A stretch of 62,209 nt of DNA from the NCBI GenBank assembly GCA_025980465.1, contig JAICXJ010000014.1, forward strand, positions 1-62,209, read 5' to 3'. The stretch is from Frankiales bacterium. GTDB taxonomy: Bacteria > Actinomycetota > Actinomycetes > JAFAQI01. Positions within the stretch are counted from its first letter, which is position 1. Every line of letters begins with the position of its first letter. A program made the position numbers and the translations under genes. Below the pieces are notes generated by a model. That model was not told the DNA's origin and searched no databases. It saw only the letters and a list, made by a program, of their open reading frames with translations. Positions 51,607 through 62,209 of this stretch are shown piece after piece.

Positions 51607-54600
51607 ATGACCGAGACGGTGAGCGGCGCGCCGCGCGGTGCCGGTGCTGGGACGACCAGCAAGCGGGCCCGCGGGCTGCGGCTCGAGCGCGTCTACACGC
51701 GCCCGGGCGTGCACCCCTACGACGAACTGACGTGGGAGCGCCGCGACGTCGTGATGACCAACTGGCGCGACGGCACCGTCAACTTCGAGCAGCGCGGGGT
51801 CGAGTTCCCGGACTCCTGGTCGGTCAACGCCGCGAACATCGTCACTACCAAGTACTTCCGTGGTGCGGTCGGCTCGCCGGAACGGGAGTCGAGCCTTCGC
51901 CAGCTCATCGACCGGGTGGTCTCGACGTACCGCAGGGCGGGCGAGGAGCACGGCTACTTCGCGACCGCTGACGACGCCGAGATCTTCGACCACGAGCTGA
52001 CCCATATGCTGGTCAACCAGATCTTCAGCTTCAACTCGCCGGTCTGGTTCAACGTCGGAACCCCGTCACCGCAGCAGGTGAGCGCGTGCCAGCCCTACGA
52101 CGCGATGGTCAGCACTCCGTCGGGCATGGTGCCGATCGGGAAACTGGTGGAGGACAACGCCGTCGGCACGAAGGTCTACGACGCGCACGGCCTTGCCCAG
52201 ATCCTCGCGGTCAAGCACAACGGTCGCAAAGAGGTTCTGCGGATCACCACGAAGGCCGGCCACCAGTTGGACGTCACCGCTGACCACCTCGTCTGGCGGT
52301 CGACCGGTGATCGCAACGGGCGGTTCGTTCCGGCAGCGGAACTGCGTGCGGGCGATGCTCTCGAGTGGCACCGCACGCATTCCTACGGTGAAGCAGAGAT
52401 CCACACGCGAGAGATCGCCGAGGCGGCCCTCGCAGGTTGGTTGCAGTCCGATGGCTTCGTTGGCCAGTACAGCGGTACGAACCGCTCGCTGACGATCGAG
52501 GCGATGACCGTCACCGACGAGGAGTTGGCGTGGGTCACCCGCGCTCTCGACGTGGTTTTCCCTGACACTCATCGTCACGAGCGGTCGGTCGTGACTCAGG
52601 ACACTAGCCTTGACTGTCGCCGGACCCGCCTCTACGGCAACGGTCTTCAGGAATACGTCGACGCCTGGGATCTGCGCGTGAGAGGCACCGAGATGGTCGT
52701 CCCTCCGCGACTGTTCGCCGCCCCCCTTCCTGTCGTCGCGGCGTATCTACGCAGCCTGTTCCAGGCGGAGGGCTACGTCAGCCGCCGGGAGCGGTCCACC
52801 CTCGTTGGCCTCGACATGATCAGCGAGGAGTTGGTCCGGGGCGTTCAGACCTTGCTTTCTCGCTTCGGGATCTTCGCTCGTGTGGGGCACAAGATCGATT
52901 CGCGACCCAACCGGAACGACACGTGGGGTATCCGGATCCAGAACGATGGCGATCGCCGGACTTTCGCCGATGAGATCGGGTTCATCGACCCGCGCAAGGC
53001 GGAGAAGCTAGAAGCGTCCTTCGAGTTGGCCGGTCGCAAGGCACTCCCCGTGAAGCGAGTCCAGATCGCGTCCATCGAATCCCGCGGCGAGATGGATGTC
53101 TATGACATCCAGACGGACTCCGGTGAGTACCTCTCGGGTGGGCTGCGCGTCCACAACTGTTTCATCCTCGCCGTCGACGACACGATGGACTCGATCCTGA
53201 ACTGGTACCGGGAGGAGGGCCTGATCTTCAAGGGCGGCTCCGGCGCCGGCCTGAACCTCTCGCGGATCCGTTCCTCGAAGGAACTGCTGTCCTCGGGCGG
53301 CACCGCGTCGGGTCCGGTCAGCTTCATGCGCGGCGCCGACGCCAGCGCCGGCACGATCAAGTCGGGTGGCGCCACCCGGCGCGCGGCGAAGATGGTGATC
53401 CTCGACGTCGACCACCCCGACGTTGAGGAGTTCATCGAGACGAAGTCGCGCGAGGAAGACAAGATCCGGGCGCTGCGCGACGCCGGCTACGACATGGACC
53501 TCGGTGGCAAGGACATCGTGTCCGTGCAGTACCAGAACGCCAACAACTCGGTCCGGGTCAACGACGACTTCATGCGGGCGCTCGAGGAAGGCCGGGAGTT
53601 CGGGCTGCGGGCGCGGCAGACCGGTGAGGTCCTCGAGACCGTCGACGCCAAGAACCTGTTCGCCAAGATCGCGAACGCGGCGTGGGAGTGCGCCGACCCG
53701 GGCATCCAGTACGACGGCACGATCAACGACTGGCACACCACGCCGGAGTCCGGCCGGATCACCGCGTCCAATCCATGCTTCCCAGCAGACCAGCGCGTGG
53801 TCACCGACAAGGGGCTAATCCGGATCGGGGACCTGGTGTCGCGCGCCGCCGAGGGTGAGGACTTCGCGGTCTACACGAATGACGTAACCAACGAGGACGA
53901 GCCGCGAGCGTGCGTGCTGGCCACCACCCCGACCCGGTACATGGTCACCGGACGCAACGAGGTCGTCGAACTTCGGTTCTCCGACGGTTCTCGGCTGCGG
54001 TGCACTCCGAACCACCGTCTCTGGACGGCGAATCGCGGATATGTGCGCGCCGAGGATCTGGCGGATGACGACCGGATCGTTCGGTCGTTCGAGTACGCCG
54101 CCCGCCCGTACGCATCGTGGTCGATCCCGGCGAAGGCCCACGAGGCGGCGCAGCGGACGGCGGGGCGCGGCGCCGCGCTCGCGCTGCCTGAGAAGTGGGA
54201 TGAGGAGTTCGCCCACTATCTGGGCTGGGCACTCGGTGACGGCTGCGTCACACGGAACGCCGTCGTGACGGTCTATGGCAACGCGGACGATCGGGAAGCG
54301 AATCTCGCCCGGCACAGCGCTGTCATTGAGCGCATCACCGGCCGCGCTCCGAAGCCCTCGGTGCAGGCCAACGGGACCGTCCAGCTGCGCGTCACCCGGC
54401 ACGCGTTTGTGACATTCATCCGTGCGCTCGGGTTCACCGCTAGTCGGGCGGCTGACACGTCGATGCCTGAGTGTGCGTTCGAGATGCCGGAGCCGGTCCT
54501 TACGGCATTCCTTCGTGGCGTGTTCGATGCCGACGGATGCGTCGTGGACGGTCCGAACGCTCGGTATGTGGGGCTGGGCAGCCGGTCCGAGGAGCTGCTG

Positions 54601-57600
54601 CTCGGGGCTCAGGAGTTGATTGCCTCACTCGGCATGGCCGCGCGGATCTACTCCAATGGGCCTTCGTTTGATCTTCGCATCAGCGGACGCAGCGCACGTG
54701 ACTACGCGGTCATGATCGGATTTGACCTGTCTCGCAAGGCGGAGAAGCTACGGGTCGCGCTGGACGATCACACTGTCTATGAGACGGACGAGACCGTCGC
54801 GCTGGTGAGTCGCGGCTCGGTTGGGTTCGAGACGACGTACAACCTCACTGAGCCGCGCAACCACAGTTACATCGTCGGCGGCGTCGTCGTGGCGAACTGC
54901 AGCGAGTACATGCACCTGGACAACTCTTCGTGCAACCTGGCATCGCTCAACCTGCTGAAGTTCCTCGGCGACGACGACACGTTCGACTCGACGAAGTTCA
55001 CCAGGGCGGTCGAGCTGATCATCACGGCGATGGACATCTCGATCTGCTTCGCCGACTTCCCGACCGAGAGCATTCGCGACACAACTCGCGCCTTTCGTCA
55101 GCTCGGCATCGGCTACGCGAACCTAGGCGCGTTGTTGTTGGCGACCGGCCACGCCTACGACAGCGAAGGCGGGCGGTCGCTCGCCGCCGCGATCACCTCG
55201 CTGATGACCGGTACGGCGTACAAGCAGTCGGCTGAGCTGGCCGGCGTCGTCGGACCGTATGACGGCTATGCCCGCAACGCCGACGCACACAAGCGGGTGA
55301 TGCGCAAGCACTCGGCTGCGAACGACATGGTCCGTCCGGTCGACGCCGACGCGGCGCGGGTACTGCATGCCGCGACGAAAGCCTGGCAGGACTGCCTCGC
55401 GATCGGTGAGAAGCATGGCTGGCGCAACGCGCAAGCGTCGGTTCTCGCGCCGACCGGATGTCTGACCGGTGACACTCTCGTCACGACCGATCGCGGCCTG
55501 GTTCGCCTCGACCAGCTCGGCGAGGTCTACGGCGAGCGCTGGCAGGATCTCGACGTGCGAGTCTCGACCGACGAGGGCGCACAGCAGGCGACCAAGTTCT
55601 TCGTCAACGGCGAGGAGCCGACGCGTCGGATCGTCACCGAGGGCGGCTACCGGATCCAGGGCACGCTCGCCCATCGGATCAAGGTCGTCGACCCAATGTC
55701 CGGCGAGTGGGTCTGGAAGCGGCTGGCCGATGTCGCCACCGGCGACCTCACCCCGGTGCAGCTCGGCACCCTGGTTGGCGAGCCGCGTCACGTGCCGCTT
55801 CCCGTACTCGACCAGGCGGATTACTCAGGTGACCACGCCGTCCGCGTGCCGGATTCGGTCGACGCCGACCTCGCCGAGCTCGTCGGCTATTTCATGGGTG
55901 ACGGGAGCCTGCATGCCACCGGCATCAGGCTCCGCGTCGCCGATACCGACCTCGATGTGGTCGATCGGTTCAAGGTGTTGGCGAAGTCGCTGTTTGACAT
56001 CGAGCCGACGATCATTCAGCAGCAGGGCTATACCGAGGTCACGCTGTCCTCGGTGCGACTCGCTCGGTGGTGGCAGGCAGCCGGCTTCGCGAAGCTGTTG
56101 CCCTCGGCCGACCATCGCGGCAACGGCTCGACACCGCGGGTGCCGGCGGCAGTGCTCGAGAGCAACGACCGCGAGATCTACGCCGCGTTCTTGCGTGGTC
56201 TGTTCGAGGCTGACGGCTCCATCGTCGAGTCAGTTCCGTCCCTCTCGACAGCGTCCGAATCGTTCGCGACCGAGGTACGCACGCTCCTGCTCGCACTCGG
56301 AATGGCCACAACGACGCGAGAGACAGTCAGCGGGAGGGGCGGGCCTCAGTTCCAGGTACGGCTGCGCAACCTCGACCACGCTTGGCGTTACGCGGAATCG
56401 GTGAACTTCCTGGGCGGACGCAACTCGCGTCTGCTGCAGTCCGTGGTGGCTAGCCAGCCGGGCAATCGCGACCGGATCTATCTGCCGCGCCAGGTGTGGG
56501 ATGGGCTGGTCCCGGCGGGGTCGCGGCATCGATCTGTCGTTGTCTCGTCGCTCGCCGAGTCCGGCAGCGTCTCACGGACGACCGCGCAGCGCGTCTTCGA
56601 CGTGACTCCCGACCCGCGGCTCGGCCATGCGCTGGGGTACCTCTTTGAGCGGGTGGCGGCCAATGAGGACGGCGGCGTTCAGCCGACGTACGACCTGTCG
56701 GTGCCGGCCAACGTCACGTACGTCGCCAACGGCCTGGTCAGCCACAACACGATCGGGCTGATGATGGATTGCGACACGACCGGCATCGAGCCGGACCTGG
56801 CGCTGGTGAAGTTCAAGAAGCTGGTCGGCGGCGGCTCGATGCAGATCGTCAACCAGACCATTCCGCGGGCACTCACCAAGCTCGGATACCAGGACGAGCA
56901 GGCCGAGGCGATCATCGAGCACATCTGCGAGCACGGCAACGTGATCGATGCGCCAGGGCTGCGCCCGGAGCACTACGAGGTGTTCGACTGCGCGATGGGC
57001 GAGCGAGCGATCTCGCCGATGGGCCACGTGCGGATGATGGCGGCGACTCAGCCGTTCATCTCCGGCGCCATCTCCAAGACCGTCAACATGCCGGAGTCGG
57101 CGACCGTCGAGGAGGTCGCGGACATCTACTACCAGGGCTGGAAGCTCGGGCTGAAGGCGCTCGCGATCTACCGCGACAACTGCAAGGTCGGTCAGCCGCT
57201 CACCGACGCCCGGGCCAAGAAGGCCGAGTCGATCATCGACGCCCCGATCGAGCACCGGCCGGTACGCCGGCGGCTGCCGAAGCGCCGGCCGAGTCAGACC
57301 GTGTCGTTCTCGGTGGCGGGCGCCGAGGGCTACCTGACGGCGGGTTCCTACCCCGACGACGGTCTCGGCGAGGTCTTCCTCAAGCTTGGGAAGCAGGGCT
57401 CGACCCTCGCCGGCGTGATGGATGCGTTCTCGATCGCGATCTCGATCGCGCTGCAGCACGGAGTGCCGCTGGAGACCTACGTGCAGAAGTTCACCAACAT
57501 GCGGTTCGAGCCGGCGGGCATGACCGACGACCCGGACATCCGCATGGCGCAGTCGGTGATGGACTACATCTTCCGTCGCCTCGCGCTGGACTACCTGCCG

Positions 57601-57927
57601 TATGACAGCCGCGCCGAGCTCGGCATCTTCACCGCCGAGGAGCGGGCCCAGACCGTGGCATCGTCGTACGGCGCTGCGCCGGCCGCACCGGCGATCGACG
57701 ACGATCTCGACCTCAACCCGGAGACGCTGCGAGACAGCGTGCCGGTAGAGGCTCAGCCGGCACCGGCACCGGCACCGGTCGAGGTGCACTCCTCGACCGA
57801 GTTGATCGAGGTACAGCAGGGCACCGCGGCGGACGCGCCGTTGTGCCTGTCCTGCGGCGTCAAGATGCGTCCCGCCGGAAGCTGTTACGTCTGTGAGTCG
57901 TGCGGGTCGACCAGTGGTTGTAGCTGA
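51607..57927 (+). CDS. nrdJ: B12-dependent (class II) ribonucleotide reductase precursor with three inteins
   Basis: A 2106-residue precursor carrying three inteins (1161 residues), leaving an enzyme of about 945 residues that reduces ribonucleotides to deoxyribonucleotides with adenosylcobalamin. ATG 51607 fits the family start. Extein landmarks in mature numbering: redox Cys161 in SACFILAVDD, radical-site Cys367 in NPCSEYMHLDN, second redox Cys378 in SSCNLASLNL, and the 550-560 loop APTGTIGLMM. The tail has a Cys-rich zinc/redox motif (CLSCG, CYVCESCGSTSGC). Intein 1 directly precedes Cys161, intein 2 Cys367, intein 3 Thr554. All reading frames are intact. Confidence 0.97.
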   Translation: MTETVSGAPRGAGAGTTSKRARGLRLERVYTRPGVHPYDELTWERRDVVMTNWRDGTVNFEQRGVEFPDSWSVNAANIVTTKYFRGAVGSPERESSLRQLIDRVVSTYRRAGEEHGYFATADDAEIFDHELTHMLVNQIFSFNSPVWFNVGTPSPQQVSACQPYDAMVSTPSGMVPIGKLVEDNAVGTKVYDAHGLAQILAVKHNGRKEVLRITTKAGHQLDVTADHLVWRSTGDRNGRFVPAAELRAGDALEWHRTHSYGEAEIHTREIAEAALAGWLQSDGFVGQYSGTNRSLTIEAMTVTDEELAWVTRALDVVFPDTHRHERSVVTQDTSLDCRRTRLYGNGLQEYVDAWDLRVRGTEMVVPPRLFAAPLPVVAAYLRSLFQAEGYVSRRERSTLVGLDMISEELVRGVQTLLSRFGIFARVGHKIDSRPNRNDTWGIRIQNDGDRRTFADEIGFIDPRKAEKLEASFELAGRKALPVKRVQIASIESRGEMDVYDIQTDSGEYLSGGLRVHNCFILAVDDTMDSILNWYREEGLIFKGGSGAGLNLSRIRSSKELLSSGGTASGPVSFMRGADASAGTIKSGGATRRAAKMVILDVDHPDVEEFIETKSREEDKIRALRDAGYDMDLGGKDIVSVQYQNANNSVRVNDDFMRALEEGREFGLRARQTGEVLETVDAKNLFAKIANAAWECADPGIQYDGTINDWHTTPESGRITASNPCFPADQRVVTDKGLIRIGDLVSRAAEGEDFAVYTNDVTNEDEPRACVLATTPTRYMVTGRNEVVELRFSDGSRLRCTPNHRLWTANRGYVRAEDLADDDRIVRSFEYAARPYASWSIPAKAHEAAQRTAGRGAALALPEKWDEEFAHYLGWALGDGCVTRNAVVTVYGNADDREANLARHSAVIERITGRAPKPSVQANGTVQLRVTRHAFVTFIRALGFTASRAADTSMPECAFEMPEPVLTAFLRGVFDADGCVVDGPNARYVGLGSRSEELLLGAQELIASLGMAARIYSNGPSFDLRISGRSARDYAVMIGFDLSRKAEKLRVALDDHTVYETDETVALVSRGSVGFETTYNLTEPRNHSYIVGGVVVANCSEYMHLDNSSCNLASLNLLKFLGDDDTFDSTKFTRAVELIITAMDISICFADFPTESIRDTTRAFRQLGIGYANLGALLLATGHAYDSEGGRSLAAAITSLMTGTAYKQSAELAGVVGPYDGYARNADAHKRVMRKHSAANDMVRPVDADAARVLHAATKAWQDCLAIGEKHGWRNAQASVLAPTGCLTGDTLVTTDRGLVRLDQLGEVYGERWQDLDVRVSTDEGAQQATKFFVNGEEPTRRIVTEGGYRIQGTLAHRIKVVDPMSGEWVWKRLADVATGDLTPVQLGTLVGEPRHVPLPVLDQADYSGDHAVRVPDSVDADLAELVGYFMGDGSLHATGIRLRVADTDLDVVDRFKVLAKSLFDIEPTIIQQQGYTEVTLSSVRLARWWQAAGFAKLLPSADHRGNGSTPRVPAAVLESNDREIYAAFLRGLFEADGSIVESVPSLSTASESFATEVRTLLLALGMATTTRETVSGRGGPQFQVRLRNLDHAWRYAESVNFLGGRNSRLLQSVVASQPGNRDRIYLPRQVWDGLVPAGSRHRSVVVSSLAESGSVSRTTAQRVFDVTPDPRLGHALGYLFERVAANEDGGVQPTYDLSVPANVTYVANGLVSHNTIGLMMDCDTTGIEPDLALVKFKKLVGGGSMQIVNQTIPRALTKLGYQDEQAEAIIEHICEHGNVIDAPGLRPEHYEVFDCAMGERAISPMGHVRMMAATQPFISGAISKTVNMPESATVEEVADIYYQGWKLGLKALAIYRDNCKVGQPLTDARAKKAESIIDAPIEHRPVRRRLPKRRPSQTVSFSVAGAEGYLTAGSYPDDGLGEVFLKLGKQGSTLAGVMDAFSIAISIALQHGVPLETYVQKFTNMRFEPAGMTDDPDIRMAQSVMDYIFRRLALDYLPYDSRAELGIFTAEERAQTVASSYGAAPAAPAIDDDLDLNPETLRDSVPVEAQPAPAPAPVEVHSSTELIEVQQGTAADAPLCLSCGVKMRPAGSCYVCESCGSTSGCS
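52087..53157 (+). mobile_element. NrdJ intein 1 (357 residues)
   Basis: Begins CQPYDAMVSTPSGMVPIG, has block B VTADH, and ends GGLRVHN before extein Cys161, the redox cysteine. A LAGLIDADG endonuclease is suggested by LAGWLQSDGFV and AAYLRSLFQAEGYVS; the second motif has Glu where Asp is usual, which may weaken cleavage. All splicing residues (Cys1, block-B Thr/His, penultimate His, terminal Asn) are present. Confidence 0.93.
53776..54897 (+). mobile_element. NrdJ intein 2 (374 residues)
   Basis: Begins CFPADQRVVTDKGLIRIGDL, block B CTPNH, and ends GGVVVAN before extein Cys367, the thiyl-radical cysteine. The penultimate residue is Ala instead of the usual His. Two well-kept dodecapeptides, HYLGWALGDGCV and TAFLRGVFDADGCV, suggest an active homing endonuclease. 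Confidence 0.93.
55459..56748 (+). mobile_element. NrdJ intein 3 (430 residues)
   Basis: Begins CLTGDTLVTTDRGLVRLDQL, block B TLAH, and ends NGLVSHN before extein Thr554 in the APTG/TIGLMMD loop. Dodecapeptides ELVGYFMGDGSL and AAFLRGLFEADGSI are intact. It is the longest of the three; the extra length lies between the second endonuclease motif and the C-terminal splicing block. Confidence 0.93.
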
Positions 57928-58039: not shown

Positions 58040-58444
58040 TCAGTCGGACAGGCCGCCGCGCTCGAGCAGCGGGCGCAGCGTCGTGCCAAGTGTCTCGAGT
58101 TCGTCGAGGTGCAGCTCGGTGAGTGACACGAGCTTCGCCTCACCGGCCCTGGTGAGCGTCACCCGGACCACCCGGCCGTCGTCGGCGTCACGATTGCGGG
58201 TGACCAGACCGAGTGCGACGGTGCGGCTGAGCAACTCGACCGCCGAGTGATGCTTGATCAGCAGCCCGTCCGCGATCCCGCCGACCGTCGGCCCCTCCGG
58301 ACCCGGATACGCCTTCACCACCAGCAACAGCTGATGCTGGGAGTGGGTCAGCCCGACCGCAGCCGCCTGCTCCTCGCTGAAGGCGTTGAACCGCCGCAGC
58401 GCGGTCCGGAATGCCAGCAGCGCCGGGTAGTCGATCTCCGCCAT
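58040..58444 (-). CDS. MarR family transcriptional regulator
   Basis: A 134-residue MarR dimer-type repressor. It has an N-terminal dimerisation helix (ALLAFRTALRRFNAFSEEQA), the winged HTH PTVGGIADGLLIKHHSAVEL with LLSRTVALGLVTRNRDADDG and the wing RVVRVTLTRAGEAKL (about residues 50-105), and a C-terminal dimer helix. ATG 58444 has GAGGTGG upstream on the minus strand. A perfect palindrome lies 27 bp upstream, between it and the divergent operon. Confidence 0.92.
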   Translation of the reverse strand: MAEIDYPALLAFRTALRRFNAFSEEQAAAVGLTHSQHQLLLVVKAYPGPEGPTVGGIADGLLIKHHSAVELLSRTVALGLVTRNRDADDGRVVRVTLTRAGEAKLVSLTELHLDELETLGTTLRPLLERGGLSD

Positions 58445-58468: not shown

Positions 58469-58490
58469 TTTATATCGCAATGCGATATAC
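58469..58490. promoter_or_regulatory. Candidate MarR operator with divergent -10 elements
   Basis: TATATCGCA-A-TGCGATATA (58471-58489) is a perfect 19-bp palindrome, the size and form of a MarR site. It overlaps TATACT (58485-58490, plus strand) and TATAAA (minus strand, 58469-58474), plausible -10 elements of the rightward operon and of marR. The gap is strikingly AT-rich for this genome. Confidence 0.85.
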
Positions 58491-58520: not shown

Positions 58521-58769
58521 ATGGACAACGACGTGCTGCTTGCCGTGATCATCGTGCTGGGCGCGGTGCTGCTGTTCGTGACTGCCTACATGGAGTGGAT
58601 CGGCGTGATGAACCTGTTCACGCCGCGGTCAGGACCACGCTACGACGAATGCGGCCATCTCAAGGTGATCATCACTACGCAGCACGGCCGGTGCTTCCAC
58701 TGCCGGCACCAGCGCCTTGAGCACGCCCTCCATCTTCCGGTGCAGCATCCTCACCAGGAAGTCCGCTAG
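58521..58769 (+). CDS. Small membrane protein with a Cys/His-rich tail, family unknown
   Basis: 82 residues from ATG 58521, which has GAGGAG 6-11 nt upstream. One transmembrane helix (LLAVIIVLGAVLLFVTAYME, about residues 6-25) is followed by DECGHLKVIITTQHGRCFHC and HRQ-type basic residues, giving three Cys and several His that could bind a metal. The end (EHALHLPVQHPHQEVR) is His-rich. It is the first gene of the putative MarR-regulated operon. I recognise no family. Confidence 0.65.
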   Translation: MDNDVLLAVIIVLGAVLLFVTAYMEWIGVMNLFTPRSGPRYDECGHLKVIITTQHGRCFHCRHQRLEHALHLPVQHPHQEVR

Positions 58770-58793
58770 CCCCTCGCGTGATGTGATCGGTGG

Positions 58794-60287
58794 GTGGCTG
58801 TCGAGACCATCCCAGATCTTGTCCAGGCGGCCGCTGACGCCCACGGTGAGCGGATCTGGCTTCGCACCGACGATGGCGAGCTGAGTTTCGCCGCCGCCGC
58901 GGCGACCGTCGGCCGCGCTATCGACCGGCTCCGCGAGGACGGCGTCCAGCCGGGCGATCGGGTGGCGCTGCTGATCCATAACACTGCACCCGACCTGTTG
59001 TGTTGGCTCGCGGTCAGCTGTCTCGGTGCGGTCGCCGTCACGATCAACCCGGCAAGCTCGCCCGCCGAGCTGAACGGCCTGGTTTCCCAGGTCCGCCCAG
59101 CGCTTCGCATCGACGACCCGCTGCGGTACGCCGGTGACTGGCGCGCGCCGTCGTCGAGCGGCGGCCGAGCGACCACGCTCTCCACGACCGCCCACCCGGA
59201 CGACATTGCGGCCTTCATCCCGACCTCCGGCACCACCGGTCGGTCGAAGCTCGTGATGCAGACCCACCGTGCCTATGCCTACGCCGGAGCCGGGTTCCCC
59301 TACTGGATGGAGCTGACCGCCGACGACCGGCTCATGACGTCGCTGCCGCTGTTCCACATCAACGCCCCGGCGTACTCGGTGATGGGCTCGCTGGCCTGCG
59401 GCGCCGGTTTGATCCTGCTGCGGCGCTTCTCGGCGAGCAGCTTCCTCGAGGCAGCCCGCCGCCACGGCGCGACGGAGTTCAACGCGATCGGCGCGATGCT
59501 CGAAATCCTGATGCGGACGCCGCGGCGCCCGGATGATGCGGCGACCGACCTGCGAGTGGTCTACACCGGGCCGTCGCCGACCCGTGAGTGGCAGGAGCAG
59601 TTCGAGGCGCGGTTCGGGTTGCGGGTGGTCTGCGGCTATGCAATGTCGGAGTCTCCGTACGGCCTGATCTGGCCGCGTGGTGGCGAGAAGTCGTTGCGTA
59701 CCAGGCCATTCGGCACCCTCGGGTCGGTCCGTCAGCACCCCACGTTGGGTGAGATCAATCAGGCGAAGGTCCTCGACGGCGAGCTCCTGCTGCGTAACCC
59801 GGTCATCACTCCGGGTTACTTCGAGATGCCCGCGCAGACCGCGGAGACGATTGTCGATGGCTGGCTGCACACCGGCGACCTGGTCACCGACAACGGCGAC
59901 GGCACCTACACCTTCCTCGCCCGCAAGAAGGAGGTACTGCGTCGGCGCGGGGAGAACCTCTCGCCTGCCGAGGTCGAGGAGGCCATCGCCTCCCACCCGG
60001 CCGTTGTCGAATGCGCCGTCGTCGGAGTGCCGTCGGACCTGACCGAGGAGGAGGTCAAGGCGTTCGTGGTCCTGCGCGCGGACAGCGAGGCGAGCTTCGC
60101 CGAGCTGCACGACTGGGCAGCGCAGCGGTTGACCAGCTTCAAGGTGCCGCGGTTCTGGCAGCGACTCGACCGGCTCCCGCGCACCCCGACCGCGAGGGTG
60201 GCCAAGCATCAGCTTCCGAGCGGACACCCGCGCGAGGAGTACGACGCCGATCCGTCGGCCGCCGTGCCAGGGTGGACGCCACCATGA
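58794..60287 (+). CDS. AMP-forming acyl-CoA ligase-like enzyme (ANL superfamily)
   Basis: 497 residues. Adenylation motifs: A3 FIPTSGTTGRSKLVMQTHRA (about residues 141-160), A5 CGYAMSESPYGL, A7 GWLHTGDLV, A8 ARKKEVLRRRGENLSPAEVE. The A10 motif, normally TGKxxK with a catalytic lysine, reads PTARVAKHQL: the lysine position is Arg, with a Lys three residues on. It resembles the CaiC/crotonobetaine-CoA ligase side of the family, but the substrate is unknown. The GTG start has only a weak ribosome-binding site. Its stop overlaps the next ATG. Confidence 0.87.
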   Translation: MAVETIPDLVQAAADAHGERIWLRTDDGELSFAAAAATVGRAIDRLREDGVQPGDRVALLIHNTAPDLLCWLAVSCLGAVAVTINPASSPAELNGLVSQVRPALRIDDPLRYAGDWRAPSSSGGRATTLSTTAHPDDIAAFIPTSGTTGRSKLVMQTHRAYAYAGAGFPYWMELTADDRLMTSLPLFHINAPAYSVMGSLACGAGLILLRRFSASSFLEAARRHGATEFNAIGAMLEILMRTPRRPDDAATDLRVVYTGPSPTREWQEQFEARFGLRVVCGYAMSESPYGLIWPRGGEKSLRTRPFGTLGSVRQHPTLGEINQAKVLDGELLLRNPVITPGYFEMPAQTAETIVDGWLHTGDLVTDNGDGTYTFLARKKEVLRRRGENLSPAEVEEAIASHPAVVECAVVGVPSDLTEEEVKAFVVLRADSEASFAELHDWAAQRLTSFKVPRFWQRLDRLPRTPTARVAKHQLPSGHPREEYDADPSAAVPGWTPP

Positions 60288-61084
60288 CTGAGTCCCGCGG
60301 CTATCCCACGTCCATCGGCACGACCGACGCCGACTCGATCACGCTGCTCGGGCGCGACCTCGCAAGCGAGCTGATGGGACAGGTCGGATTCGCCGAACTT
60401 GCCTTTTGGCTGGTCGCGATGCGGCGCCCCACCGAGGGAGAGCTACGCGTGTTCGAGGCCGTGCTGGTGGCTCTCGCCGACCACGGTTTCACCCCGTCGG
60501 CGATTGCCGCCAGACTCACGCTGACCGGTGCCCCGGAGTCCATCCAGGGCGCGCTCGCCGCGGGGCTGCTCGGCGGCGGCTCCCGCTTCCTCGGCGTCAC
60601 TGAGGACTGCGGCGGCTTCCTGATCGATGCGCTGGCCGCCCACGCTGCGGCGGGAGGCCCACCACCGTCCGAGGACGCGGATTTCGACGGGGTCGCGCGG
60701 ACCGCGATCGCGAAGCGGCGCGCTGCCGGTGGGTACGTACCGGGGTTGGGCCACCCCGTCCACAAGGTCGCTGATCCGCGCACCGCCGTCCTGATCCGGA
60801 TCGCTGCGGGATCCGATCAGCGCGGTCCGCATCTTCGGTTGTTCGAGGCAGTCGGACGGGTCCATCCCGAGCAGCTCGGTCGAACCTTGCCCCTCAACGG
60901 GGCAGGGGTGTGCGGCGCGGCCCTGGCCGACCTCGGCTTCGGTGCCGACATCCTCCGGGGATTCGCGCTGCTCGCCCGCACCGCGGGCCTGCTCGGTCAC
61001 CTCGCCGAGGAACGCCGTCGGCCGATCGGTCAGGCGCTCTACCGCGACGTCGAGCTCGCGACCGACTACGACTCCCCGGGCTGA
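60284..61084 (+). CDS. Citryl-CoA lyase / short citrate synthase-like protein
   Basis: 266 residues of the citrate synthase superfamily, much shorter than citrate synthase (about 370-430) and like the stand-alone citryl-CoA lyase group. Seen: MGQVGFAELAFWLVAMRRPT, LTGAPESIQGALAAGLLGGG, VPGLGHPVHKVADPRTAVL (a conserved His) and LLARTAGLLGHLAEERRRP. The family cleaves citryl-CoA or similar 3-hydroxyacyl-CoAs to acetyl-CoA plus a keto acid. ATGA overlap with the ligase gene implies co-translation. The 3' end overlaps the convergent PAP2 gene. Confidence 0.85.
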   Translation: MTESRGYPTSIGTTDADSITLLGRDLASELMGQVGFAELAFWLVAMRRPTEGELRVFEAVLVALADHGFTPSAIAARLTLTGAPESIQGALAAGLLGGGSRFLGVTEDCGGFLIDALAAHAAAGGPPPSEDADFDGVARTAIAKRRAAGGYVPGLGHPVHKVADPRTAVLIRIAAGSDQRGPHLRLFEAVGRVHPEQLGRTLPLNGAGVCGAALADLGFGADILRGFALLARTAGLLGHLAEERRRPIGQALYRDVELATDYDSPG

Positions 61085-62085: not shown

Positions 62086-62209
62086 TCAGCTCGCAGCCGC
62101 CAGCGGCGCCGGCTCGGGAGCGTCGGAGTCGGTCGGATAGGGCCGAAGGATCGGCTGTGCAGATTCGGGCCGAAGGATCGGCTGTGCAGATTCGGGCCGA
62201 AGGATCGGC
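62086..62209 (-). CDS. C-terminal end of an unidentified protein with 9-residue repeats (5' end outside window)
   Basis: Reading leftward from the right edge, an open frame runs to TGA at 62086-62088. It encodes repeats of ESAQPILRP (two full plus a partial PILRP) and then YPTDSDAPEPAPLAAAS. The tandem unit is 27 bp, so the repeat keeps the frame. The Pro/Ala/Glu-rich character suggests an unstructured tail. Only 40 residues are visible and the domain it belongs to cannot be known from this window. Confidence 0.6.
   Translation of the reverse strand, partial: PILRPESAQPILRPESAQPILRPYPTDSDAPEPAPLAAAS
62140..62209. repeat. 27-bp tandem repeat reaching the window edge
   Basis: Unit gggccgaaggatcggctgtg plus cagattc, starting at 62140, 62167 and 62194 (last copy cut by the window end). 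Identical copies, in frame with the minus-strand partial gene. Confidence 0.9.

What the first reader, a model, noticed from the sequence alone, without database searches (positions are those of the whole stretch)
58521..61084. Putative MarR-controlled operon: small Cys-rich membrane protein, acyl-CoA ligase, citryl-CoA lyase
Three genes with 24-bp and ATGA junctions pair a CoA ligase with a stand-alone citryl-CoA lyase-like enzyme. Together these could activate a hydroxy-carboxylic acid to its CoA ester and cleave it to acetyl-CoA or propionyl-CoA plus a keto acid. The pathway is not one I can name, and MarR could sense the aromatic or acidic substrate.
Basis: inference. Interest (0 to 1): 0.5.

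Follow-up and report, generated by a model that had tools for sequence, protein, structure and literature searches.

The report
CoA ligase paired with Asp-less lyase
A bacterial gene pair that attaches coenzyme A to an unknown acid and probably splits it is real and conserved, but its 'citryl-CoA lyase' lacks the aspartate known from that enzyme family, and most of its close relatives sit beside genes for breaking open aromatic rings.

Summary
The genes are as described: MarR (58040-58444, -), an 82-aa membrane protein (58521-58769), an AMP-forming CoA ligase (58794-60287) and a citryl-CoA-lyase-like protein (60284-61084), with 24-bp and ATGA junctions. The "operon" is two modules. (1) MarR and the small protein flank a 19-bp perfect palindrome, unique in the genome; three relatives also have the small gene divergent from a MarR gene, away from ligase and lyase. 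(2) Ligase and lyase pair: in 99 genomes (own included) the ligase occurs in 11, the lyase in 17, both in 10, adjacent in 7. In 39 named loci a CoA-activating enzyme stands directly before the lyase in 35: a class III CoA transferase (29) or this ligase (6), never both. Many also hold LigB (25), an amidohydrolase (27) and IclR (30). The window's nearest lyase relative, a Mycobacterium MAG, joins the ligase to that aromatic cluster; the window's own genome lacks LigB. The lyase has the citryl-CoA-lyase fold and its His and Arg residues, but the aspartate is Ala in 53 of 53 orthologues, so the name is doubtful. Best reading: CoA-dependent C-C cleavage, substrate unknown.

The parts
58040..58444 (-). 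MarR-family regulator (134 aa), divergent from the small gene
   Evidence: Pfam PF12802 MarR_2 44.4 bits
58471..58489 (.). Perfect palindrome TATATCGCA-A-TGCGATATA between MarR and the small gene; probable MarR operator
   Evidence: Only match with up to 3 mismatches in the window (0 in 100 shuffles) and in the held genome of 3.45 Mb, 95% complete; 4 of 2000 shuffles of the 76-bp gap give perfect arms of 9
58521..58769 (+). Small protein (82 aa): hydrophobic N-terminus and C-terminal CGH...CxxCRH (likely zinc-binding)
   Evidence: No Pfam or NCBIfam hit; close relatives in 3 of 98 other genomes, each divergent to a MarR gene; motif conserved
58794..60287 (+). AMP-forming acyl-CoA ligase (497 aa, GTG start)
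   Evidence: PF00501 and PF13193; orthologues at E<1e-100 in 11 of 99 genomes, own included; Arg at the usual A10 Lys position in all 14 other loci that cover it
60284..61084 (+). Citrate-synthase-fold lyase-like protein (266 aa), annotated 'citryl-CoA lyase', without the family's aspartate
   Evidence: NF004868 276 bits; model's best PDB match 6hxp citryl-CoA lyase; A207 aligned with Asp of 6hxp and of Chlorobium ATP-citrate lyase
60902..60904 (+). Codon of Ala207, the position of the family's aspartate
   Evidence: A in 53 of 53 close orthologues, D in 1 of 62 homologues aligned

Best explanation
The stretch holds two units. Unit 1: MarR and a small, probably membrane-anchored and zinc-binding protein, divergently transcribed and controlled by MarR at the palindrome between them. 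Unit 2: an overlapping gene pair in which the AMP-forming ligase turns an unknown carboxylic acid into its CoA thioester and the citrate-synthase-fold protein then breaks a carbon-carbon bond of that thioester. The pair is the ligase version of a module that in most of the actinobacterial loci found uses a class III CoA transferase in place of the ligase and stands beside LigAB-type extradiol ring cleavage, an amidohydrolase and an IclR regulator. The natural substrate is therefore probably a polycarboxylic acid that arises from aromatic ring fission or resembles such a product. Catalysis must work without the aspartate of citrate synthase and citryl-CoA lyase. Shown here: gene content, pairing, interchangeable activating enzyme, predicted fold, loss of Asp. 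Inferred: order of steps, C-C cleavage, substrate class, regulation.
For: Co-occurrence: ligase 11, lyase 17, both 10 of 99 genomes (own included), Fisher p = 1.3e-8 without correction for relatedness; adjacent in 7. Of 39 named loci, directly upstream on the same strand: CoA transferase 29, ligase 6; 3 cut by the contig end, 1 with the transferase divergent; never both. The two sets overlap: L044 and G084's contig are the same sequence. Four-base overlap between activating gene and lyase in 17 of 28 measured loci. LigB 25, LigA 24, amidohydrolase 27, IclR 30 of 39. In the 99 genomes, close LigB (E<1e-150) occurs in 6, all with the lyase; close amidohydrolase (E<1e-200) in 8, of which 7 have the close lyase. 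L070, a Mycobacterium MAG whose lyase is the window's sister (support 97/88), has LigB-LigA-DoxX-amidohydrolase-VOC-ligase-lyase in a row. A Rhodococcus plasmid shows the transferase form. Fold: model pLDDT 81, pTM 0.78, best match 6hxp, E 3.3e-11. Asp position: Ala in 53 of 53 close orthologues, while H67, H157 and R232 are the same in all of them that cover these columns (51, 53 and 52). D1026A of human ATP-citrate lyase is called inactive (PMC10115795, abstract and passages); a deposited archaeal D541A mutant holds citryl-CoA (PDB title).
Against: The window's genome has no LigB homologue at E<=0.001 and only weak partial amidohydrolase matches, so ring fission is not shown for this organism; LigB is present in only 1 of the 6 named ligase-type loci. 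In G031 the ligase stands without any close lyase; in G004 and G061 the two lie on different contigs, and G004's lyase has no activating gene beside it. G010 has the lyase but no ligase at E<=1e-60 and no activating gene beside it. G047 has the close amidohydrolase but no close lyase. No activity, substrate or transcript is known. Loss of Asp could also mean a thioesterase or a non-catalytic protein. PMC10115795 itself argues that D1026 acts allosterically in ATP-citrate lyase, so absence of Asp does not by itself decide the chemistry.
Confidence: 0.5

Rival explanations
1. One reading: one MarR-controlled operon in which the lyase is an ordinary citryl-CoA or citramalyl-CoA lyase with citrate-synthase chemistry.
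For: Above the NCBIfam cut-off for 'citryl-CoA lyase'; same predicted fold; tight spacing; palindrome between MarR and the small gene.
Against: Asp replaced by Ala in 53 of 53 close orthologues. MarR and the small gene keep other company in relatives.
Confidence: 0.12
2. The Asp-less protein is a citryl-type thioesterase: citrate synthase hydrolyses citryl-CoA after condensation, and without Asp only the hydrolytic half would remain. Paired with a ligase it would recycle or proof-read CoA esters.
For: His and Arg residues kept; citrate synthase does hydrolyse citryl-CoA (PMC5830745, passages).
Against: A ligase or transferase directly coupled to a hydrolase of the same ester would be futile; an activating enzyme stands directly upstream in 35 of 39 loci, which suggests a forward step.
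Confidence: 0.15
3. The protein runs in the synthetic direction: it condenses an acyl-CoA made by the ligase with a keto acid.
For: Same superfamily as citrate and methylcitrate synthases.
Against: Asp375 is the base that deprotonates acetyl-CoA in citrate synthase (PMC5830745, passages) and is missing; many relatives stand with dioxygenase, amidohydrolase and PcaR-like IclR genes, which look catabolic.
Confidence: 0.1
4. The protein is a scaffold or allosteric partner of the ligase or transferase, not an enzyme, in the way that PMC10115795 argues for the citrate-synthase-homology module of ATP-citrate lyase.
For: Loss of Asp; an activating enzyme of one of two unrelated kinds directly upstream in 35 of 39 loci.
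Against: His and Arg of the site unchanged in the orthologues; it would have to serve two unrelated activating enzymes; ligase and lyase on different contigs in G004 and G061.
Confidence: 0.08

Closest known systems
Citryl-CoA lyase of Hydrogenobacter thermophilus (PDB 6hxp)
   Same: Fold and length; best PDB hit by sequence (5.8e-25) and by structure (3.3e-11).
   Different: LNVDG in 6hxp is LNGAG here: Asp to Ala; partner is an AMP-forming ligase (in Hydrogenobacter a separate citryl-CoA synthetase, recalled).
ATP-citrate lyase, citryl-CoA-lyase module (human, Chlorobium, Methanosaeta)
   Same: Homologous module; there a CoA ester of a hydroxy-polycarboxylic acid is made by another unit.
   Different: Separate ligase of the ANL type instead of a fused succinyl-CoA-synthetase-like unit; no Asp.
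Other 'citryl-CoA lyase' (PRK06224-type) proteins on plasmids
   Same: Same annotation; six that I chose from 111 records (five proteobacterial, one rhodococcal; 40-45% identity) also lack Asp (NATG, NVSG, NAAG, NGAG).
   Different: Mostly other neighbours: acyl-CoA dehydrogenases, MaoC, acetate-CoA ligase-like genes, CoA transferases, TRAP transporters; Martelella has LigB-, LigA- and amidohydrolase-like genes.
LigAB (protocatechuate 4,5-dioxygenase) type extradiol pathways
   Same: 25 of 39 named lyase loci hold a LigB-like and 24 a LigA-like gene.
   Different: Known LigAB pathways end with the LigK aldolase and need no CoA (recalled); here a CoA-activating enzyme and a citrate-synthase-fold protein are present; the window's genome lacks LigB.

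Membership tests
Citryl-CoA lyase | Citrate-synthase / citryl-CoA-lyase fold | tested here: met
   AlphaFold model and Foldseek, 6hxp TM-score 0.75 by query length
Citryl-CoA lyase | NCBIfam curated cut-off | tested here: met
   NF004868, 276 bits against 193
Citryl-CoA lyase | His and Arg of the active site (ADHG, GxGHxxH, LxAR motifs) | tested here: met
   H67, H157 and R232 unchanged in the close orthologues that cover them, 51, 53 and 52 rows; roles recalled
Citryl-CoA lyase | Active-site Asp (Asp375 of citrate synthase, Asp1026 of ATP-citrate lyase) | tested here: not met
   Ala207; A in 53 of 53 close orthologues, D in 1 of 62 homologues
[quoted passage not shown]
   needs an assay
AMP-forming acyl-CoA ligase (ANL) | AMP-binding and C-terminal domains, P-loop TSGTTG-x-x-K | tested here: met
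   PF00501, PF13193; TSGTTGRSK
AMP-forming acyl-CoA ligase (ANL) | A10 catalytic Lys | tested here: not met
   Arg aligned with the corresponding Lys of 8weu; Arg in all 14 other loci that cover the motif, duplicates counted once. Some working ANL ligases may have Arg here too (recalled, not tested)
MarR-regulated operon | MarR gene with palindrome in the divergent promoter region | tested here: met
   binding not tested
MarR-regulated operon | Ligase and lyase belong to the MarR unit in relatives | tested here: not met
   no match to the window's MarR or small protein at E<=1e-10 in 39 named lyase loci; other contexts; weak MarR-like matches about 5 kb off in 2 loci
LigAB extradiol pathway | LigB dioxygenase in the same genome | tested here: not met
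   no LigB match in G000 at E<=0.001; genome 95% complete

The most novel reading that the evidence does not exclude
The proteins filed as 'citryl-CoA lyase' (PRK06224) are a separate, natural Asp-less branch of the citrate-synthase fold. With an interchangeable CoA ligase or class III CoA transferase they form a CoA-dependent cleavage module for products of extradiol aromatic ring fission (for example an oxalocitramalyl-CoA-like ester), a CoA-dependent counterpart to the LigK-type aldolase ending, with a new catalytic mechanism.
Probability: 0.3. Interest if true: 0.65.

Novelty: new variant of a known kind. Interest (0 to 1): 0.42.

Why it matters
A database name in wide use would be wrong for a whole family, and an unnamed CoA-dependent route for ring-fission products in actinobacteria could be tested with two small proteins. 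It would also show how a citrate-synthase fold works without the residue regarded as its key base.

Tried and rejected
Literature: in ten searches I saw no title or abstract that describes this pair, this gene cluster or the missing Asp. Several listings were cut (20 of 129, 10 of 20, 12 of 48, 12 of 39 papers), and the library holds open-access papers only, so this does not show that it is not in print. Passages were read in five papers: PMC10115795 and PMC5830745 are used above; PMC13118837, PMC8235520 and PMC2864759 turned out to be about other things.

Pathway assignment: gallate, protocatechuate, quinoline-type and nitrogen-heterocycle routes were considered; none could be fixed, because LigB is only distantly like gallate and protocatechuate dioxygenases and the amidohydrolase only distantly like triazine, cytosine and guanine hydrolases. 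VOC and maleylpyruvate-isomerase-like neighbours did not settle it. First neighbour counts were spoiled by spurious antisense ORFs in GC-rich DNA; one search missed the CoA transferase of 4 loci; one search corrects this after 8 reference proteins of odd length were dropped. The promoter and terminator scan found nothing.

Limits: the 39 named loci come from one scan seeded with the window's own lyase and so lean to close relatives; they overlap with the 99 genomes. Gene calls and start codons are my own crude ones. Fisher's test ignores relatedness. Many loci are MAG contigs. In the tree the label 'transferase' was given to every row not known to be otherwise, one of which (L118, an unannotated record) I did not check; L014 was labelled 'ligase' although its ligase lies on another contig; 8 rows had no label; the bootstrap had not settled.

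Full report
Observation. The ligase starts with GTG 24 bases after the small gene; the lyase start overlaps the ligase stop in ATGA.

Two units, not one. Between MarR and the small gene lies a 19-base perfect palindrome at 58471-58489. It is the only such site with up to three mismatches in the window and in the held genome of 3.45 Mb, so the regulator looks local. In 99 genomes (the window's own, G000, and 98 relatives) the small protein has three close relatives, in G003, G004 and G008 (G015 is a weak match). In each a MarR gene stands divergent to it, with palindromes in the gap; in G004 my gene caller puts a 93-aa ORF between the two. G003 and G008 have no lyase match at E<=0.001 and no ligase match at E<=1e-60, and in G004 small gene, ligase and lyase lie on three different contigs. 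These MarR proteins are only distantly like the window's (29% over 104 and 36% over 56 residues for two of them, no hit for the third). The window's own MarR has orthologues of 55-59% identity in several relatives; in the five whose neighbours I could read by eye (G002, G004, G005, G010, G012) these were other genes; a sixth (G007) could not be read because the caller picked an antisense frame. So MarR plus small protein is one recurring arrangement and ligase plus lyase another. They are neighbours here; whether a transcript runs through is unknown.

The ligase-lyase pair. Lyase orthologues (E<1e-50) occur in 17 of 99 genomes, ligase orthologues (E<1e-100) in 11, both in 10; the exception is G031. 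Fisher's p is 1.3e-8, uncorrected for relatedness. They are adjacent in seven: G000, G005, G038, G053, G069, G077 and G084. In G002 both lie at contig ends; in G004 and G061 they are apart, and G004's lyase has no activating gene beside it. Seven genomes have the lyase without this ligase: six of them (G039, G067, G072, G081, G086, G094) have the CoA transferase beside it; G010 has neither.

The module elsewhere. One scan of named genomes with the window's lyase gave 39 loci; at least one (L044) is the same contig as one of the 99 genomes (G084). Directly upstream on the same strand stands a class III CoA transferase in 29 and the ligase in 6; three loci are cut by the contig end, and in one (L067) the transferase is divergent; no locus has both. 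Other neighbours among the 39: IclR 30 (PcaR-like: 260 bits to TIGR02431, below its cut-off of 284.75), amidohydrolase 27, LigB 25, LigA 24, zinc dehydrogenase 10, VOC 6. LigB and amidohydrolase are common with the transferase (24 and 26 of 30) and rare with the ligase (1 and 1 of 6). That one, L070, is the window's nearest relative in the lyase tree (97/88) and reads LigB-LigA-DoxX-amidohydrolase-VOC-ligase-lyase. The tree needs a single switch between ligase and transferase partners (labels as told under limits). On annotated plasmids, Rhodococcus sp. NBC_00297 has the transferase form with a hydroxylase of the 3-hydroxyphenylpropionate kind; R. rhodochrous BX2 has transferase and lyase with a VOC gene but no LigB in the stretch shown; the alphaproteobacterium Martelella has LigB, LigA, amidohydrolase, IclR, lyase and transferase, the last three to six more distant in sequence and the transferase downstream. 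The window's genome has no LigB homologue at E<=0.001 and only weak amidohydrolase matches. It has a VOC homologue of 56% on another contig and no close maleylpyruvate-isomerase-like protein.

The lyase. Its AlphaFold model (pLDDT 81.1, pTM 0.78; residues about 71-100 weak) matches citryl-CoA lyase 6hxp best, then lyase modules of ATP-citrate lyases, then citrate synthases. Alignments to 6hxp and Chlorobium ATP-citrate lyase put Ala207 on the Asp of their NVDG motif. In 62 homologues this position is Ala in 55 (all 53 close orthologues among them), Thr in 4, and Ser, Val and Asp in one each; the Asp is in L028, a distant homologue. H67, H157 and R232 are unchanged in the close orthologues that cover them. 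By recall and spacing these correspond to His900, His975 and Arg1065 of human ATP-citrate lyase and Ala207 to Asp1026; I saw no direct alignment to the human numbering. D1026A inactivates human ATP-citrate lyase; whether Asp1026 is a base or acts allosterically is debated there (PMC10115795, abstract and passages). In citrate synthase Asp375 takes the proton from acetyl-CoA (PMC5830745, passages). A deposited archaeal ATP-citrate lyase carries D541A and holds citryl-CoA (PDB title); that this is the same Asp is likely but unchecked. Identity of 58-76% among the orthologues argues against a decaying gene.

The ligase. Domains are complete. It reaches the cut-off of none of the 25 NCBIfam models shown, of 98 matched, so the substrate is open. 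The A10 lysine position holds Arg in the window and in all 14 other loci that cover it.

Reading. The evidence fits a CoA-activation-and-cleavage module that often stands with ring-fission genes; in the window's genome the ligase form is present without a LigB-type dioxygenase, so its substrate must come from elsewhere. C-C cleavage, substrate and regulation are inferences.

Noticed in passing
51607-57927: A class II (B12) ribonucleotide-reductase-like gene seems to hold three intein-like insertions (Cys starts, HN- or AN-type ends) in its translation, read by eye.
   Followed up: no
58521-58769; L129, L130, L131: Small protein with a conserved CGH...CxxCRH motif that stands divergent to a MarR gene with a palindrome between them in four genomes; no Pfam family.
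   Followed up: partly
L070:650-6783: Mycobacterium MAG contig that joins LigAB, amidohydrolase and VOC genes to the ligase-lyase pair; a good candidate for naming the pathway.
   Followed up: partly
L040, L042, L077, L082, L083, L125, L126: A maleylpyruvate-isomerase-like gene, VOC genes and a MetE-like gene recur in varying combinations around ligase-type loci, but not next to the window's pair.
   Followed up: partly
62140-62209: Tandem repeat of 27 bp at the very end of the contig.
   Followed up: partly
L112-L117: Six 'citryl-CoA lyases' on rhodococcal and proteobacterial plasmids also lack the Asp; most stand with acyl-CoA dehydrogenase, MaoC, CoA transferase or TRAP transporter genes; probably several catabolic roles.
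   Followed up: partly
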